From positions 1-64,000 of the IMG/VR virus record IMGVR_UViG_3300040935_000019: a stretch of 64,000 bases of DNA. One strand, 5' to 3'. The DNA is from a virus. Shown here piece by piece: positions 31,160 through 42,231 of this stretch. Numbering within the stretch: position 1 is the stretch's first letter; the number at the start of each line of letters is the position of its first letter. A model generated the notes under the pieces. It worked only from the letters and a program-made list of their open reading frames with translations. It had not been told where the DNA came from and did no database searches. A program made the position numbers and the translations under genes.

Positions 31160-32791
31160 CTATTTGTGATAAACATAAACCAAATTTCCACAAGTAGGAA
31201 TTTTGTAGTATCCGTTAATTTCCATGTTTTTCTCTTCTGTCAAAGCCCCATCAAAGAAAGTTATTCCAAATTTTCCTGTAGAGAAATACTCCTTGATCTT
31301 GTGCTTTTGAAAAAATTCTCTTGAAAATACTTTTCTTCCATCTTTTGTGTAGAAATAACCTGGTTGAGTTATAGAAATTCTTTTGAACCCCAGCTTTTCA
31401 TACACTTTTCCGTCAGAGAACATGAGATCGGCATAAGAAATGAGAGATTTAGGCTTAAAAACACTAAGAACTTTTCCTAGAAATCCAACTGTAGTCGTGT
31501 GTTTTTTGTTTGCAAATCTGATTAGTTCATACTCATACTCTTTTCTATATCTAGGTTTCGAAAAAGCGGCCACAGAAACTAATTCATCTCCAACAAAAAA
31601 TCCAAAACTATAAGAAAAAGGAACTTTTCCTCCGGAAATATGATTCTCTTCAAAAAACTCAGAAGCTTGGTTATAATCTATTTCACAAATAGTACCTTTT
31701 CTGGCATAGAAAACTTTGTCAAATATTCCAAGTTTTGCTTTAATCATGGAAGTAACCAAGTCAGTTTTTTCAAAAACCCAAAAATCGTAGAAGAAAAGAA
31801 CATTTATTCCCCTATCCAAAAAGAAAAATTTTTTCTTCTGAAGGTGGTATGGATTCTTTTTTCTGTCAGAATGCCAATACGATCCATTAAGTTCCACTCC
31901 AACTCCCAAGTTTTCAAAAATAAAATCTACCTCCAATCCATCTATCTTCTTTCTGAACTCAAAATTCACAGGGATATGAGAGGCTATTTCTTCCTCAAAA
32001 AACGACTCAAGAGATGATTTCTTTTGTCTGCATTCTGGGCAAGATGAAACTTTGTATCGAAGCAAAACGTTCAAATGATAATCAAAAGTTCTTCCACAAG
32101 AGCAAATAAGACTAACCTTTTGTTCTATAGAACGAAAATTTATACCTACTAATTTTAGATTATTTTCTTCAAGGTAAGAAAAAACCCTATTCCTAACCTC
32201 AATACTCTTTTTTTGTAAAGCTTCTCTTTTTCTTTTTTCATCAGCAATTTTTCTAGCCTTTAAGGAAATGTTCTTCCTGAGATTTTCAATTTTTTCCTTT
32301 TTTCCAAGGTATCTATCACGTAAAGTTTCATAAGAGAAATCTGCCAGAATTTTTGAGTCAAGTACAAAAATAAATCTAAACCTACCAAAGTCCAGAATGG
32401 CATCTACACCTAAATCTTTATTGTAATCTTCCAAATTGTTGACAAGTTTCATGACTTCCGAAAACTCAGGAAGAAATTTCATTTTGTTCAAAAAAATAAA
32501 AACTAACTCTGCAAGGCCTATCTCCCTAAAATTTTCACTACCTAGTTCTTTATAAAATCTTTCCGTTTCTAAATTGTACTTTATATCCTGAGCTGACTTT
32601 CTAGTGCTAATTGATTTTTGGTACAAGGTTTCGTAGGGAATTAGGTACTTTTTGTCTTTATAATAGACAATTACCCCTTCTGGAGAAAGCTTGTATTCCA
32701 AACCTTCAAGAAAGGATAACATTTTTTCTACTCTTCTTTTTGGCTTTTCAAGCGATTTATGCTCAATTGGACTAGTGAAGTCTATTTTCAT
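31160..32791 (-). CDS. Hef-like homing endonuclease: zinc ribbon, Vsr-like nuclease, Mom/GNAT-like tail
   Basis: Domains in order: a 190-residue N-terminal helical region; a basic helix; a zinc ribbon (CSCGRTF...CPEC, about 235-258); a Vsr/EDxHD-type nuclease core (LEVDFIFENLGVGVELNGSYWHSDRK...INVLFFYDFWVFEKTDLVTSMIKAKLG); and a C-terminal region like phage acyltransferase-fold proteins (FFEENHISGGKVPFSYSFGFFVGDELVSVAAFSKPR). This set is typical of free-standing phage homing endonucleases of the T4 Hef type. Start is ATG at 32789-32791, 6 nt after TACAAT with a TGG extension; the longer frame reads into the neighbouring tRNA. Insertion between two tRNA genes fits a mobile intruder. Confidence 0.72.
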   Translation of the reverse strand: MKIDFTSPIEHKSLEKPKRRVEKMLSFLEGLEYKLSPEGVIVYYKDKKYLIPYETLYQKSISTRKSAQDIKYNLETERFYKELGSENFREIGLAELVFIFLNKMKFLPEFSEVMKLVNNLEDYNKDLGVDAILDFGRFRFIFVLDSKILADFSYETLRDRYLGKKEKIENLRKNISLKARKIADEKRKREALQKKSIEVRNRVFSYLEENNLKLVGINFRSIEQKVSLICSCGRTFDYHLNVLLRYKVSSCPECRQKKSSLESFFEEEIASHIPVNFEFRKKIDGLEVDFIFENLGVGVELNGSYWHSDRKKNPYHLQKKKFFFLDRGINVLFFYDFWVFEKTDLVTSMIKAKLGIFDKVFYARKGTICEIDYNQASEFFEENHISGGKVPFSYSFGFFVGDELVSVAAFSKPRYRKEYEYELIRFANKKHTTTVGFLGKVLSVFKPKSLISYADLMFSDGKVYEKLGFKRISITQPGYFYTKDGRKVFSREFFQKHKIKEYFSTGKFGITFFDGALTEEKNMEINGYYKIPTCGNLVYVYHK

Positions 32792-32797
32792 AAGCTC

Positions 32798-32806
32798 ATT
32801 GTACCA
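32798..32806 (-). promoter_or_regulatory. Extended -10 promoter of the Hef-like gene (leaderless)
   Basis: TGG-TACAAT on the minus strand with 6 nt to the ATG at 32791. It lies between the tRNA 3' end and the gene; no -35 match is seen. Confidence 0.5.
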
Positions 32807-32814
32807 AAAAATTT

Positions 32815-32891
32815 TGGTGGGCCAGGTAGGACTTGAACCTACAACCAACCGGTTATGAGCCGGACGCTCTAACCAATTGAGCTACTGGCCC
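32815..32891 (-). tRNA. tRNA with CAU anticodon (Met or lysidine-type Ile), CCA encoded
   Basis: Minus strand: acceptor GGGCCAG/CTGGCCC, D arm GCTC...GAGC, anticodon loop CTCATAA (anticodon CAT), T arm GTAGG-TTCAAGT-CCTAC, discriminator A, encoded CCA. It does not have initiator-tRNA features (the acceptor begins with a paired G). Elongator Met and Ile2 (AUA-reading after lysidine modification) cannot be separated by eye; the heavy AUA use of the genome makes Ile2 attractive. Confidence 0.93.
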
Positions 32892-33274: not shown

Positions 33275-33320
33275 TACCTCCTCCTATTTATGACTTCCTC
33301 TCTCTATCATCCAGGTTCGT

Positions 33321-34694
33321 TTACATTATTTTGCCAGAGAACCCGCATGCGGCCTCCTCCCACAACTGGGCTTCCTCCTTCATCGAGGGAACATTAACAC
33401 GAATATAGGGATTAGACCCAAATATTCGTGTTAAAGCTTCCCTCTCCAGAGGCGTAAGTTCGGGGCGGCCCACCCCTACGACATCCTCAGAACTCAGACC
33501 AAGTCCCTTTTTCAAAATCACCAATGCCGCATTAATATCTCTATCACACTCCCAACCGCATTCGCATTTAAATACTCGTTCAGAAAGTTTTATCTCGTTT
33601 AATTTTCCGCAAACAACGCATTCCTTAGTAGTTATTTCAAACCTTCCAACTGGAACAACGTTATCAAGGTTATTTTTTATTCTTGCTTTTATTGAACCTA
33701 TTCCTGAAGAATTAACTTGAGCGCCGAAAAGTTTTGTCCATCCGTGAATATTGTCTTCTTGGTATACGACTTTTTCGTAATTTTTTAGAAACGCAATTAT
33801 CCTATCGTGTACATCTTTGCGTTTTCTACTAATTTTCTCATATTCTCTTTTCAAGAGATCAATAATCTTTTGCCTATTCTTTGAACCTTTTTGCACTCGT
33901 GAAAGTTTTTTATGTAGTCTTTTTAGACGTTTAGTTTCCTTCAACTCAAAATTCAACTTTATCCCGTTAGACATAGTCAATTTAGAACTAACTCCAAAAT
34001 CTATAGATACTGGACCAAACTTTTGTCGTCTATTAACCTCCTCTTTTGGTACAAAACAATTCAAATAAACATAATAGCCGCTTGGTTTACTGATCAAAGA
34101 AGCGGTTGCTATTTCTGCATCGGCAGGAATTCTATGTAATCCAAGAACACGGAAAGATCCGAGTTTTTGTATCTTTATCCTATTTCTTGAAAAGTCTATA
34201 GTGTGAGTGCTTCCGTATTGTTTTAGAGGTATAGAACTTATAAACGACTTAAATTTCAGTCTTCCGATTTTTTGTCCATTATTTTTTGCGGCTTTTAGAG
34301 ATTTTAGGCTTCTTTTCACTTCATCCGCTAAAGCCTGCTTGACTTGTGAACCTAACAAAATAAGTTCCCTTTCTTCAAAACTATCTCCAACCTTGACTTC
34401 TACCCTATTAATCTTATTAACTGGAAGCTTAACTCTTTCAATATCGGAAATTAACCAATTATAAAACCACTTTGCTTCAAGAAAAACTCTTTTCAACTCT
34501 TCTTCTTTCTTCTTTGAAAGATTTTGTATTTTCAATTCCACAACAAAAGGAGTTTGATTTTTTCTACGTTCTTTCGTTTCCTGAATAGCCGCTTTTATCT
34601 TTTCGTTTCTCGCCTTTATTTTTGCCTCAAGTGCCTCTTGATTTTTGATGTCAAAAATGCTATTGTTAGGTTCCTGTTTAGTTAGGTAGTCCAT
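33321..34694 (-). CDS. tnpB: TnpB RNA-guided nuclease (IS200/IS605 family), no TnpA partner
   Basis: The 457-residue protein has the RuvC-like triad intact: Asp232 in VSIDFGVSS, Glu313 in VVYQEDNIHGW, and Asp384/386 in CDRDINAALVILK. A zinc ribbon lies between (CVVCGKLN...FKCECGWEC, Cys359/362/377/379). TnpB proteins cut DNA guided by omega-RNA made from the transposon right end. The last 50 codons here overlap the probable scaffold (GVGRPELTPLER region and a 13-bp hairpin). A consensus promoter places the start site at the ATG (leaderless). No tnpA or clear left end is present, so it may act as a homing-type nuclease. An extra 45-residue charged N-terminus precedes the usual start. Confidence 0.92.
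   Translation of the reverse strand: MDYLTKQEPNNSIFDIKNQEALEAKIKARNEKIKAAIQETKERRKNQTPFVVELKIQNLSKKKEEELKRVFLEAKWFYNWLISDIERVKLPVNKINRVEVKVGDSFEERELILLGSQVKQALADEVKRSLKSLKAAKNNGQKIGRLKFKSFISSIPLKQYGSTHTIDFSRNRIKIQKLGSFRVLGLHRIPADAEIATASLISKPSGYYVYLNCFVPKEEVNRRQKFGPVSIDFGVSSKLTMSNGIKLNFELKETKRLKRLHKKLSRVQKGSKNRQKIIDLLKREYEKISRKRKDVHDRIIAFLKNYEKVVYQEDNIHGWTKLFGAQVNSSGIGSIKARIKNNLDNVVPVGRFEITTKECVVCGKLNEIKLSERVFKCECGWECDRDINAALVILKKGLGLSSEDVVGVGRPELTPLEREALTRIFGSNPYIRVNVPSMKEEAQLWEEAACGFSGKIM
33353..33480 (-). ncRNA. Probable omega-RNA scaffold at the tnpB 3' end
   Basis: The region from GTAGGGGTGGGCC to GTGGGAGGAGG on the minus strand is repeated in shortened form at 41364-41450, showing it is a conserved right-end element and not just coding sequence. 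It holds a nested hairpin: GAGGGAA...TTCCCTC enclosing TTAACACGAATAT (33422-33434) paired with ATATTCGTGTTAA (33394-33406). The guide would be the bases after GTGGGAGGAGG, beginning CCGCATGCGGGTT. Confidence 0.6.
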
Positions 34695-34701
34695 GACAAA
34701 A

Positions 34702-34730
34702 ACAGTACACCATTAGGTTTTCTTTGTCAA
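34702..34730 (-). promoter_or_regulatory. tnpB promoter (leaderless)
   Basis: Minus strand TTGACA (34725-34730), 17 bp, TACTGT (34702-34707), then 7 nt to the ATG at 34694, so transcription should begin at or next to the start codon. Confidence 0.85.
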
Positions 34731-34748
34731 GCCCCCCCTGCGCAATAG

Positions 34749-35858
34749 CTAACCAACACCGTTTTCGCTAAACCAGGTCCTTACAGACACTTGTACAAAA
34801 TCTGCTTTTCTTCTAAACTCCTCTAAAGATTTTGCTCCAACATAAGACATTGAAGAACCCAAAGCATAGTTGATAGTGTTAATAATTTCCTCTAAGTTTG
34901 GAGGATCTTTAGACAAATAAACATCTCCTTCAGCGTATCTATTGCCCACATAAGTGGATGCCATTCCGTAGTATCTAGCTATTCCTGTGCTTTTATCATA
35001 AGTTTCCATTTCTTTGCTAATAAACAATTTTCCAGACATAACAAAATCAGAAAATACTAAAGCTTTTGCTATATCTCCATAGTATTTTATCCCACCATCT
35101 GAAATTATCTTCACGCTAAATCCTTCCTTAATTTTCTCTATTAAATCTTCATATTTCCACAAAAATTCTTCAGAAAGTTCATGAATTCCTTTGTCAAGAT
35201 CTGTTTTGCCCAAAATTTTGGCGATTATTTCTAGGATTGACATTTGTGGAAATCCGACTCCACTCATTAACCTAGTTGTACACGCACTTCCGCTTCCGAT
35301 GCCAACACGAATGATAATTTCTTTGTATTTTTCCCAAGTATTTTTTGCCAAATAATATAAACCTTCAACAGAAGCAATATTTCCAACAATGACTCCCTTG
35401 TCAATTCCGAGAGAATTCAAGTAAATTAATGTATTAACTACCAAATTTGTAGATCCAAACGCCGTATCCACCAAAACAAAACTATAATAATCAAGATTTT
35501 TTTCAAACTTTTTTCTGAATGAATGATCCTCTACTTCTCTGGGACCAATAGATATTGCAGTGTATATACTATTTTCCCCAAGATCTTTTATCAGATCTAT
35601 CCTTTCTTCAATGGGCCTATTTATTCTTGAAACAGCGAACAAAAGTCTGTGTTTAGTAAAAATTTCTGCAAAATTTTTCCAAAAATAAGACATTGGTGAG
35701 CTAAATATGGGTAAAGACAATCTTATTTCTTTCCCATTAATATTTGTAATACTTGAAGACTTGTCTATATCTCTTCTTGAAATAACTTCATCGTTGAAAG
35801 TTGGAACAATTAAAACATCGTCAAAGGTGTACCCTTTTATTTTTTCTCTCCCCTTCAT
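34749..35858 (-). CDS. GMP reductase/IMP dehydrogenase family enzyme
   Basis: A 369-residue TIM-barrel enzyme without CBS domains. Motifs: GYTFDDVLIVP near the N-terminus, RVGIGSGSACTTRLMSGVGFPQ (phosphate loop with catalytic Cys), ISDGGIKYYGDIAKAL, then YYGMASTYVGNRYAEG and SMSYVGAKSLEEFRRKADFVQV. The last two segments look more like GMP reductase (FYGMSS, TYVGA) than IMPDH, which would recycle GMP to IMP; IMPDH activity cannot be excluded. It belongs with the phage nucleotide set. Start ATG at 35856-35858 lies 9 nt from a TATATT box; a longer frame begins inside the promoter. Confidence 0.82.
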   Translation of the reverse strand: MKGREKIKGYTFDDVLIVPTFNDEVISRRDIDKSSSITNINGKEIRLSLPIFSSPMSYFWKNFAEIFTKHRLLFAVSRINRPIEERIDLIKDLGENSIYTAISIGPREVEDHSFRKKFEKNLDYYSFVLVDTAFGSTNLVVNTLIYLNSLGIDKGVIVGNIASVEGLYYLAKNTWEKYKEIIIRVGIGSGSACTTRLMSGVGFPQMSILEIIAKILGKTDLDKGIHELSEEFLWKYEDLIEKIKEGFSVKIISDGGIKYYGDIAKALVFSDFVMSGKLFISKEMETYDKSTGIARYYGMASTYVGNRYAEGDVYLSKDPPNLEEIINTINYALGSSMSYVGAKSLEEFRRKADFVQVSVRTWFSENGVG

Positions 35859-35867
35859 GGCAAGGAC

Positions 35868-35896
35868 AATATAGCACAAAGAAACTTTATTGTAAA
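35868..35896 (-). promoter_or_regulatory. Promoter of the GMP reductase-like gene
   Basis: Minus strand TTTACA (35891-35896), 17 bp, TATATT (35868-35873), ATG 9 nt downstream. An inverted repeat CTTGTGG (35913-35919)/CCACAAG (35936-35942) lies just upstream and could bind a regulator. Confidence 0.7.
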
Positions 35897-41043: not shown

Positions 41044-41313
41044 ATGTCCTTGAGGCTAAACCCATACACAGGAAAATACGAGTTCGCCGAAGATGATATG
41101 GGGATTACTTACAACGAATTTGAGAGGAAGTACGAGTACGGTTACAATAATGTCAGAGAAACTAATCCATTCAACATGAGAATTTCCTCTAAAGGAAGGG
41201 TTCCGAAGTACAATCCTTATACCGGAGAGTGGGAAACTGTACCCGAACATTGGGTCATTAGGTACAATCCTTACGAAAGGAAATATCAGTATGGACCCCC
41301 AGATTGGGAATAA
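41044..41313 (+). CDS. YNPY tandem-repeat small protein (89 aa)
   Basis: Four copies of a 12-residue aromatic motif occur in two types that alternate: RLNPYTGKYEFA (about 4-15), TYNEFERKYEYG (about 22-33), KYNPYTGEWETV (about 58-69) and RYNPYERKYQYG (about 75-86). The spacing is A-B-linker-A-B, implying an internal duplication. No cysteine, membrane helix or enzyme motif. It has a strong promoter and excellent ribosome site, so it is probably made in quantity. I do not know a function; a peptide-binding or multimeric scaffold role would fit short aromatic repeats. Confidence 0.78.
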   Translation: MSLRLNPYTGKYEFAEDDMGITYNEFERKYEYGYNNVRETNPFNMRISSKGRVPKYNPYTGEWETVPEHWVIRYNPYERKYQYGPPDWE

Positions 41314-41363
41314 AAAATGTTGATAAATAACATTTATAGTTCAAAAAGTTATAGTATAAGTTC

Positions 41364-41543
41364 AGTAGGGGTGGGCCGCCCCGAATTCACGCCCCTGGAG
41401 AGAGGTAAATCTCTCGATGAAGGGGGAAGCCCACAAGTGGGAGGAGGTCATCCTTGGGACGCTATATTTTTCCATTGTGGGAGGAGGTCATGCTTCCATG
41501 GAAGGGAAGCCAGAAAAGTTATCCCGTTTGTGGGAGGAGGTCA
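41364..41543 (+). ncRNA. Solitary TnpB right-end (omega-RNA-like) locus with three scaffold-end repeats
   Basis: Bases 41364-41450 match the 3' region of tnpB (33353-33480, opposite strand): AGTAGGGGTGGGCCGCCCC, ACGCCCCTGGAGAG, TCGATGAAGG.GGAAGCCCA and GTGGGAGGAGG. The central hairpin is shorter but kept (GAGAG-8 nt-CTCTC). The terminal GTGGGAGGAGGTCA occurs three times, at 41437-41450, 41477-41490 and 41530-41543, each followed by a different sequence. No tnpB is attached. It could be a decayed insertion or an RNA that guides the phage TnpB in trans. Only a weak promoter-like sequence (TATAGT at 41350) precedes it. Confidence 0.62.
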
Positions 41544-41607
41544 AGAGGAGACATCTGGGGGTTGTTGACGTGGAAGAAGCCACTAAATCAAGAATGGAGG
41601 AACGAAA

Positions 41608-42231
41608 ATGGACCAAAATAGGAACAAATCTAAATTGGTAAATCAAGATATTAATCTCAGAAATTTAGATAACTTGTCTTATAGAGATGCACTTAAATTA
41701 TTAACCAAACCTTTTCCAATTTCTGCAATTCAATTTCGTCCAGATAGAGAGGTTAATGTTTCCGGTAAAAAGTTTTATAAAGTTGTTCCGTATCTTGACA
41801 CCAGATACATAGTCTTAAGGCTTAACAATGTTGTTCCAGGAAATTGGAATTTAGAAACAAAAGTTTTTCCTATTTCTCAAAATGAAAAAAATGTTTACGG
41901 GTTTTACGCTACATCTACATTAACAATTTTAGGTGTTTCACATTCTGATGTTGGATCGTCTTTTATTCTTGAAAATGATTTAGACAAGTTGAAGAGGCAA
42001 CAAGTGAAGCTGGATCCAAAAAGTGCAGTAACAGATTCTATAAGAAGGGTTGCCGCACTTCATGGAATTGGTCTGTATCTATGGTTCTTAAAAAAGGATC
42101 TTTTGGTAGAAGATTTAAGAGAATTAACAGATAAGTCTAGAAAAGTTGTTGAGTACGCAAAATATATTTTAGATGTAGGAAGGCTTTTATACGAGAAGGG
42201 CCTAGAAATGTCTTTTGGAGAGGAAATATGA
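41608..42231 (+). CDS. Rad52-like single-strand annealing protein
   Basis: The 207-residue protein has the Rad52/Sak pattern: FPISAIQFRPDREVNVSGKKFYKVVPYLDTRYIVLRLNNVVPGNWNLETKVFPI (Rad52-type 'N.....W...V'), YGFYATSTLTILGVSHSDVGSSF, then DPKSAVTDSIRRVAALHGIGLYLW (K/AVTDAxKRA...G). These proteins form rings on single-stranded DNA and anneal complementary strands. Its stop overlaps the recA start, coupling the two. GGAGG precedes ATG. Confidence 0.78.
   Translation: MDQNRNKSKLVNQDINLRNLDNLSYRDALKLLTKPFPISAIQFRPDREVNVSGKKFYKVVPYLDTRYIVLRLNNVVPGNWNLETKVFPISQNEKNVYGFYATSTLTILGVSHSDVGSSFILENDLDKLKRQQVKLDPKSAVTDSIRRVAALHGIGLYLWFLKKDLLVEDLRELTDKSRKVVEYAKYILDVGRLLYEKGLEMSFGEEI

What the first reader, a model, noticed from the sequence alone, without database searches (positions are those of the whole stretch)
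41364..41543. Solitary TnpB right-end locus, possibly a trans-acting omega-RNA with three guide sites
Seen: 41364-41450 (+) closely matches the 3' end of the phage tnpB (33353-33480, -), including TAGGGGTGGGCCGCCCC, and the end GTGGGAGGAGG. The hairpins differ in sequence but keep pairing (GAGAG/CTCTC here, GAGGGAA/TTCCCTC at tnpB), which indicates RNA-level selection. The scaffold end GTGGGAGGAGGTCA then repeats twice more (41477, 41530), each with a different 3' flank. Known: TnpB guides are the bases just after the right end. Inference: one TnpB may be served by several RNAs, or these are nested relics of excised insertions.
Basis: partly seen in the sequence, partly recalled or inferred. 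Interest (0 to 1): 0.75.

Follow-up and report, generated by a model that had tools for sequence, protein, structure and literature searches.

The report
Standalone TnpB guide-RNA gene, repeated ends
A virus related to phages of the hot-spring bacterium Thermus carries, 7 kb from its RNA-guided DNA-cutting enzyme TnpB, a separate copy of that enzyme's guide-RNA gene whose guide-attachment end is repeated three times before three different sequences, which may be a rare natural half-way form towards a CRISPR-style guide array or may be a decaying relic.

Summary
41363-41450 (+) is a complete TnpB guide-RNA (omega-RNA) scaffold: a covariance model trained on 25 relatives, without the window's sequences, finds it at E=1.6e-23 and the tnpB copy at 1.4e-33. 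Twenty-eight aligned scaffolds show strong covariation and a pseudoknot between the first loop and the guide-proximal handle. The window's tnpB copy keeps that pseudoknot by a change on both sides (GGC:GCC instead of GAC:GUC). The handle GTGGGAGGAGGTCA recurs exactly at 41437, 41477 and 41530; a degraded fourth copy at 41570 is suggestive. The repeated unit equals the crRNA-like part of the omega-RNA, and copies 2 and 3 (TTGTGGG) pair perfectly with the scaffold's CCCACAA. Ordinary solo copies with a transposon left end occur in Thermus phage phiLo and another viral contig; this copy has no recognisable left end, and the record has no detectable Y1 transposase. Tandem handles are rare: one further clear case in a viral collection, none in 534 bacterial genomes of two phyla. 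No guide target was found, and no close relative shows the empty site. Best reading: a trans-encoded omega-RNA gene for the phage's TnpB. Whether the extra handles present extra guides (about 0.3) or are relics is open.

The parts
33321..34694 (-). tnpB, 457 aa, residues aligned to the RuvC motifs present
   Evidence: Pfam Cas12f1-like_TNB 2.9e-11 and OrfB_IS605 7.3e-9; phrog_506 transposase 3.3e-45; aligned D, E and D with solved TnpBs
33350..33481 (-). omega-RNA scaffold at the tnpB 3' end; handle ends GGCCGC
   Evidence: CM E=1.4e-33; pseudoknot GGC:GCC
33291..33300 (-). second right-end-like motif GAGGAAGTCA, 59 nt downstream of the tnpB scaffold end
   Evidence: only four GAGGANGTCA in the 64-kb window
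41327..41355 (+). possible promoter ATAACA-17-TATAGT, with a start expected at about 41362
   Evidence: 9 of 12 consensus; not above chance by itself; L027 and phiLo solo copies also have TATAAT upstream of the scaffold
41363..41450 (+). solo omega-RNA scaffold with handle 1
   Evidence: CM E=1.6e-23 with window sequences left out of training; alignment
41368..41382 (+). stem 1 (41368-41373 with 41377-41382), loop GGC 41374-41376 for the pseudoknot with GUC 41447-41449
   Evidence: helices 1 and 2
41400..41415 (+). short hairpin GAGAG/CTCTC that replaces the long tnpB hairpin
41430..41436 (+). 5' arm of terminal hairpin CCCACAA, anti-repeat-like
   Evidence: perfect reverse complement of 41475-41481 and 41528-41534
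41437..41450 (+). handle 1, GTGGGAGGAGGTCA
41452..41467 (+). presumed guide 1, CCTTGGGACGCTATAT
   Evidence: position after the handle; the position before the guide is C in nearly all relatives
41477..41490 (+). handle 2, exact copy
41530..41543 (+). handle 3, exact copy
41570..41583 (+). possible degraded handle 4, GTGGAAGAAGCCAC (GCC would pair fully with the GGC loop)
   Evidence: suggestive only

Best explanation
The locus is a standalone guide-RNA gene for the phage's own TnpB, derived from the right end of an IS200/IS605-type element that has lost tnpB and its left end here. Transcribed from just upstream of 41363, the RNA folds into the TnpB scaffold, closes the pseudoknot with a handle, and is loaded in trans by the TnpB made from 33321-34694. 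The bases after the handle are the guide. The three handles are tandem copies of the crRNA-like 3' part. The scaffold arm CCCACAA could pair with handle 1 or instead with handle 2 or 3, so that one scaffold could present alternative guides after 3' trimming. Shown: the scaffold, its structure, the exact handle copies and their complementarity. Inferred: transcription, loading by TnpB, cleavage and handle switching.
For: CM hits with the window left out of training. Covariation and the pseudoknot paired in all 28 sequences, including the compensated window tnpB copy. Intact TnpB in the same genome. Solo scaffolds in phiLo and L027. No detectable Y1 transposase in the record. 41363-41602 is among the most GC-rich 240-nt stretches of the window (top 0.014%), as for RNA genes in an AT-rich thermophile virus. 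The repeated 14-mer is the crRNA-like part defined by the ISDra2 structure (PMC10097598). The anti-repeat fits handles 2 and 3 by 7 bp, and folding to the end of handle 2 keeps the whole scaffold and pairs the arm with handle 2 at P about 0.99 for its first five pairs.
Against: No transcript data. No target for any presumed guide. Guide 2 is partly palindromic. The array region folds only as well as shuffles. Transcripts carried to 41562 or beyond are predicted to prefer other folds. Handles 1-3 are followed by T, T and A instead of the near-universal C. No close relative shows the array maintained.
Confidence: 0.62

Rival explanations
1. A decaying mini insertion sequence. The scaffold was a non-autonomous IS200/IS605 copy; its left end is gone, and the extra handles are debris of slippage, partial duplication or recombination at the right end. 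Nothing, or only guide 1, is used.
For: Complete mini copies with a left end exist in phiLo and L027. No left end found here. The canonical C after TCA is lost. Copies 1 and 2 share 18 of 19 nt, as in a slippage duplication. Weak similarity of some spacers to scaffold (single-reference p 0.015-0.13 at best; 0.025-0.55 when the best of 28 references is taken). L254 shows a right-end unit duplicated by about 52 nt.
Against: Three handles identical over 14 nt while the sequence between them is unrelated or saturated; scaffold pairing intact; handle identity begins exactly at the crRNA-like boundary; the 5' arm matches handles 2 and 3.
Confidence: 0.33
2. A small protein gene. The frame 41417-41641 is open for 74 codons through all handles (K/L-WEEV at handles 1 and 3), and a 47-codon frame from 41498 has handle 2's GGAGGAGGT as a ribosome site.
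For: Open frame; plausible GGAGGAGGT spacing of about 9 nt; GGAGG precedes other genes of this phage, such as erf.
Against: No relative in phages, Pfam or PHROGs (best E 0.05). It starts inside a covarying RNA scaffold, overlaps erf by 34 nt, handle 2 is out of frame, and the stretch is far more GC-rich than the phage average.
Confidence: 0.04
3. The repeats are regulatory or protein-binding sites in the leader of the erf-recA genes, unrelated to guides.
For: Position directly upstream of erf and recA.
Against: The repeat is the handle of an adjacent intact scaffold, and no such repeat is found elsewhere in the phage apart from the tnpB end. phiYS40-type phages have dnaB, not this array, upstream of erf.
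Confidence: 0.01

Closest known systems
IS200/IS605 TnpB with right-end omega-RNA (OMEGA); solved example ISDra2 TnpB (PDB 8h1j, 8bf8)
   Same: Scaffold with stems, pseudoknot to the last bases before the guide, guide directly after the right end; intact TnpB in the genome
   Different: RNA gene separate from tnpB, no left end, three handles
Non-autonomous IS200/IS605 mini elements (MITE or PATE type) with their own omega-RNA; here phiLo L125 and L027
   Same: Solo scaffold with short hairpin, TATAAT-like box upstream, no tnpB beside it
   Different: phiLo and L027 carry a left end and one right end finishing in TCAC; the window copy has no left end and repeated ends without the final C
Tracr/crRNA pairs of type V CRISPR and TranC-type intermediates (LaTranC, PDB 9jfo)
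   Same: One tracr-like part plus repeats equal to the crRNA-like part, repeat:anti-repeat complementarity
   Different: Only three or four short repeats with uneven spacers of 26 and 39 nt (about 26 before the degraded fourth), no adaptation genes seen nearby, no targets, effector encoded 7 kb away with its own cis scaffold
Tandem right-end unit in viral contig IMGVR_UViG_3300035105_000060 (L254)
   Same: Two terminal-hairpin and handle units after a TnpB C-terminus, 52 nt apart
   Different: Each unit has its own complete hairpin; the spacer resembles the sequence upstream of unit 1, so a plain tandem duplication explains it

Membership tests
TnpB omega-RNA (IS200/IS605) | Conserved scaffold fold with compensated stems | tested here: met
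TnpB omega-RNA (IS200/IS605) | Pseudoknot between the first loop and the guide-proximal handle | tested here: met
   100% of cells paired; window solo GGC:GUC, window tnpB GGC:GCC
TnpB omega-RNA (IS200/IS605) | A TnpB that can load it is present | tested here: inconclusive
   TnpB present in the genome; loading not testable by sequence
TnpB omega-RNA (IS200/IS605) | Guide matches a target next to the TAM (TTTAC in this family) | tested here: inconclusive
   No target in own genome, four Thermus phage records, plasmids or IMG/VR; guide 2 was sought only in the own genome and by BLAST; host genomes not reached
Non-autonomous IS200/IS605 element (MITE or PATE) | Left end with subterminal hairpin after TTTAC | tested here: not met
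   Not seen upstream of 41363; present in phiLo and, as a left-end hairpin, in L027
Non-autonomous IS200/IS605 element (MITE or PATE) | Right end finishing in the family cleavage sequence TCAC | tested here: not met
   TCAT, TCAT, TCAA against TCAC in nearly all relatives
CRISPR array, type V | Regularly spaced repeats with unique spacers | tested here: inconclusive
   Three exact 14-nt repeats, spacers 26 and 39 nt; copies 1 and 2 share the first flank bases
CRISPR array, type V | Spacers derived from foreign DNA | tested here: inconclusive
   No protospacer found
Split tracr/crRNA guide (TranC-like) | Separate crRNA units paired to a tracr-like arm | not testable with these tools
   Complementarity exists; processing needs RNA data
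TldR (nuclease-dead TnpB repressor) | RuvC catalytic residues lost | tested here: not met
   Aligned D, E and D retained

The most novel reading that the evidence does not exclude
A natural proto-CRISPR guide locus: one tracr-like TnpB scaffold followed by several crRNA-like repeats, each with its own guide, used by a phage-encoded TnpB through alternative pairing of CCCACAA with successive TTGTGGG handles.
Probability: 0.25. Interest if true: 0.88.

Novelty: new variant of a known kind. Interest (0 to 1): 0.55.

Why it matters
The origin of type V CRISPR guides is thought to involve splitting or duplication of the TnpB omega-RNA (discussion of PMC10097598). A standalone scaffold with its crRNA-like part repeated three times next to different sequences would be a living test case, in a small phage-borne system, and it predicts testable RNAs. 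Even if it is a relic, it shows the raw material: right-end duplications that place one scaffold in front of several possible guides.

Tried and rejected
Close relatives of the flanking genes, to see an empty site: none for erf in IMG/VR; phiYS40-type phages have another gene order there. Guide targets: own genome, phiLo, YS40_Isch, phiYS40, T72 and the sister contig (guides 1 and 3, chance-level matches only), plasmids, IMG/VR 17-mers (five matches, none next to TTTAC). Tandem handles elsewhere: four pattern hits in IMG/VR, two of them coding sequence, one an unrelated palindrome at a contig end (L255) and one real case (L254). In Aquificota two hits in 136 genomes, both coding by inspection; 0 of 398 genomes in the phylum of the Clostridiales MAG. 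The short exact motif search was too unspecific. Spacers as degraded scaffold: significant against single references, mostly not against the best of 28. Rfam has no match for the solo scaffold. Extra stability of the array region: none. Scaffold-wide folding energy alone is uninformative (z -0.29); covariation is the evidence.

Full report
WHAT IS THERE. The window is most of a 64.8-kb IMG/VR virus record, 34% GC. Its erf and recA relatives are in Thermus phages phiYS40, TMA and T72. It encodes one TnpB (33321-34694, -) and no detectable Y1 transposase. At 41363-41450 (+), just upstream of erf, is a second copy of the tnpB 3'-end sequence.

THE SOLO COPY IS A REAL OMEGA-RNA SCAFFOLD. I collected TnpB relatives from genomes and viral contigs, extracted their right ends and aligned 28 scaffolds. 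The consensus fold has stem 1, a second stem with an inner hairpin, and a terminal hairpin. In the structure I tested, 96.4% of cells pair against 77.4% when shuffled and 44-56% when slid; 18 of 27 pairs have changes on both sides. A covariance model built from 25 relatives without either window sequence finds the tnpB copy (1.4e-33) and the solo copy (1.6e-23), well separated from the next hit (0.04). The short hairpin of the solo copy is normal in Aquificota scaffolds and is also found in phiLo and L027; the long form overlaps the tnpB coding region (inference).

PSEUDOKNOT. In ISDra2 the last bases before the guide pair with an upstream segment (PMC10097598). Here the equivalent is loop GAC with handle GUC, and this helix is paired in 28 of 28. 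The window's tnpB copy has GGC in the loop and GCC in the handle, a change on both sides; the window's solo copy has GGC with GUC. So the odd CCGC ending of the tnpB copy need not be decay. It is a single sequence, so the weight of this pair is limited.

THE REPEATED HANDLES. GTGGGAGGAGGTCA is exact at 41437, 41477 and 41530. In the ISDra2 structure paper the omega-RNA is described as a natural single guide RNA with a tracr-like and a crRNA-like part joined by a loop; the repeated 14-mer here corresponds to the crRNA-like part, starting at the loop. The scaffold arm CCCACAA is the exact reverse complement of TTGTGGG in copies 2 and 3; copy 1 has AAGTGGG. With the transcript ending at handle 2, the predicted fold keeps the whole scaffold and pairs the arm with handle 2 (P about 0.99); ending at handle 3 it divides between 2 (0.73) and 3 (0.27), and at 65 C favours 3 (0.85-0.90); transcripts carried to 41562 or beyond prefer other folds. 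These are predictions without protein or pseudoknot. A weaker fourth copy, GTGGAAGAAGCCAC at 41570, lies 40 nt after copy 3; 26 places in the window come as close at four edits, so it is suggestive only.

COMPARISON WITH OTHER SOLO COPIES. phiLo has a tnpB (48.6% identity) and, elsewhere, a mini copy with left end, TATAAT box and scaffold, ending in TCAC. L027, a 9.5-kb viral contig without an evident tnpB, has another. In a sample of Aquificota, 4 of 30 scaffold loci had no TnpB hit nearby. So solo scaffolds are a known kind. What is unusual here is the repeated handle. A scan of IMG/VR found one other clear tandem case, L254; whole-genome scans found none in 136 Aquificota genomes (two coding hits) and 0 in 398 genomes of the Clostridiales MAG's phylum. 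The window's own record is left out of such scans.

WHAT SPEAKS AGAINST AN ARRAY. No target was found for the presumed guides. Guide 2 begins with a palindrome. The array region is GC-rich (top 1.1% of windows) but folds no better than shuffles. The base after TCA is T, T and A instead of C. TnpB is reported to process only the 5' end of its RNA (PMC10278001), so separate handles would need trimming by other nucleases. A 74-codon frame runs through the handles but has no relatives.

VERDICT. Observation confirmed. A trans-encoded omega-RNA gene for the phage TnpB is the best reading (0.62 for the core). Use of more than one handle is possible (about 0.3) and would be new; a relic is the main rival. 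References to PATE elements, TranC and TldR families beyond the cited calls are from my own knowledge; primary papers that I tried to look up on solo omega-RNAs and TnpB diversity were not held.

Noticed in passing
L125 4888-5093 (Thermus phage phiLo, MH673673): A mini IS200/IS605-type copy (left end after TTTAC, TATAAT, short-hairpin scaffold, TCAC) sits at the 3' end of a gene annotated as restriction endonuclease; its presumed guide CCAGCCAAACGCCTGG continues that gene.
   Followed up: partly
L027 6749-6845 (-) (IMGVR_UViG_3300010239_000005): Another solo omega-RNA with left-end hairpin and TATAAT in a viral contig with structural genes and no tnpB among its ORFs.
   Followed up: partly
L254 120-300 (IMGVR_UViG_3300035105_000060): A TnpB C-terminus followed by two terminal-hairpin and handle units (GAGGATGTCAA) 52 nt apart, hairpin arms different but both paired.
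   Followed up: partly
window 33291-33300 (-): A second right-end-like motif GAGGAAGTCAT 59 nt past the tnpB scaffold end, one of only four GAGGANGTCA in the window.
   Followed up: partly
window 33321-35879 and L251 1-1378: tnpB lies next to the IMP dehydrogenase-like gene both here and, with an IS605 OrfB, in Thermus phage T72: a possible recurrent insertion place.
   Followed up: no
L005 / window about 33034: Sister contig IMGVR_UViG_3300040934_000037 has a 100% identical TnpB but diverges abruptly about 300 nt downstream, suggesting recombination beside tnpB.
   Followed up: no
window 31160-32848 (-) and L125 5820-7088 (-): By eye, similar zinc-ribbon plus nuclease-like proteins of unknown function lie near TnpB-type elements in both phages.
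   Followed up: no
window 41044-41313 (+): Small protein with repeated NPYTGKY-like motifs (phrog_28453, 7.8e-10), directly upstream of the solo scaffold.
   Followed up: no
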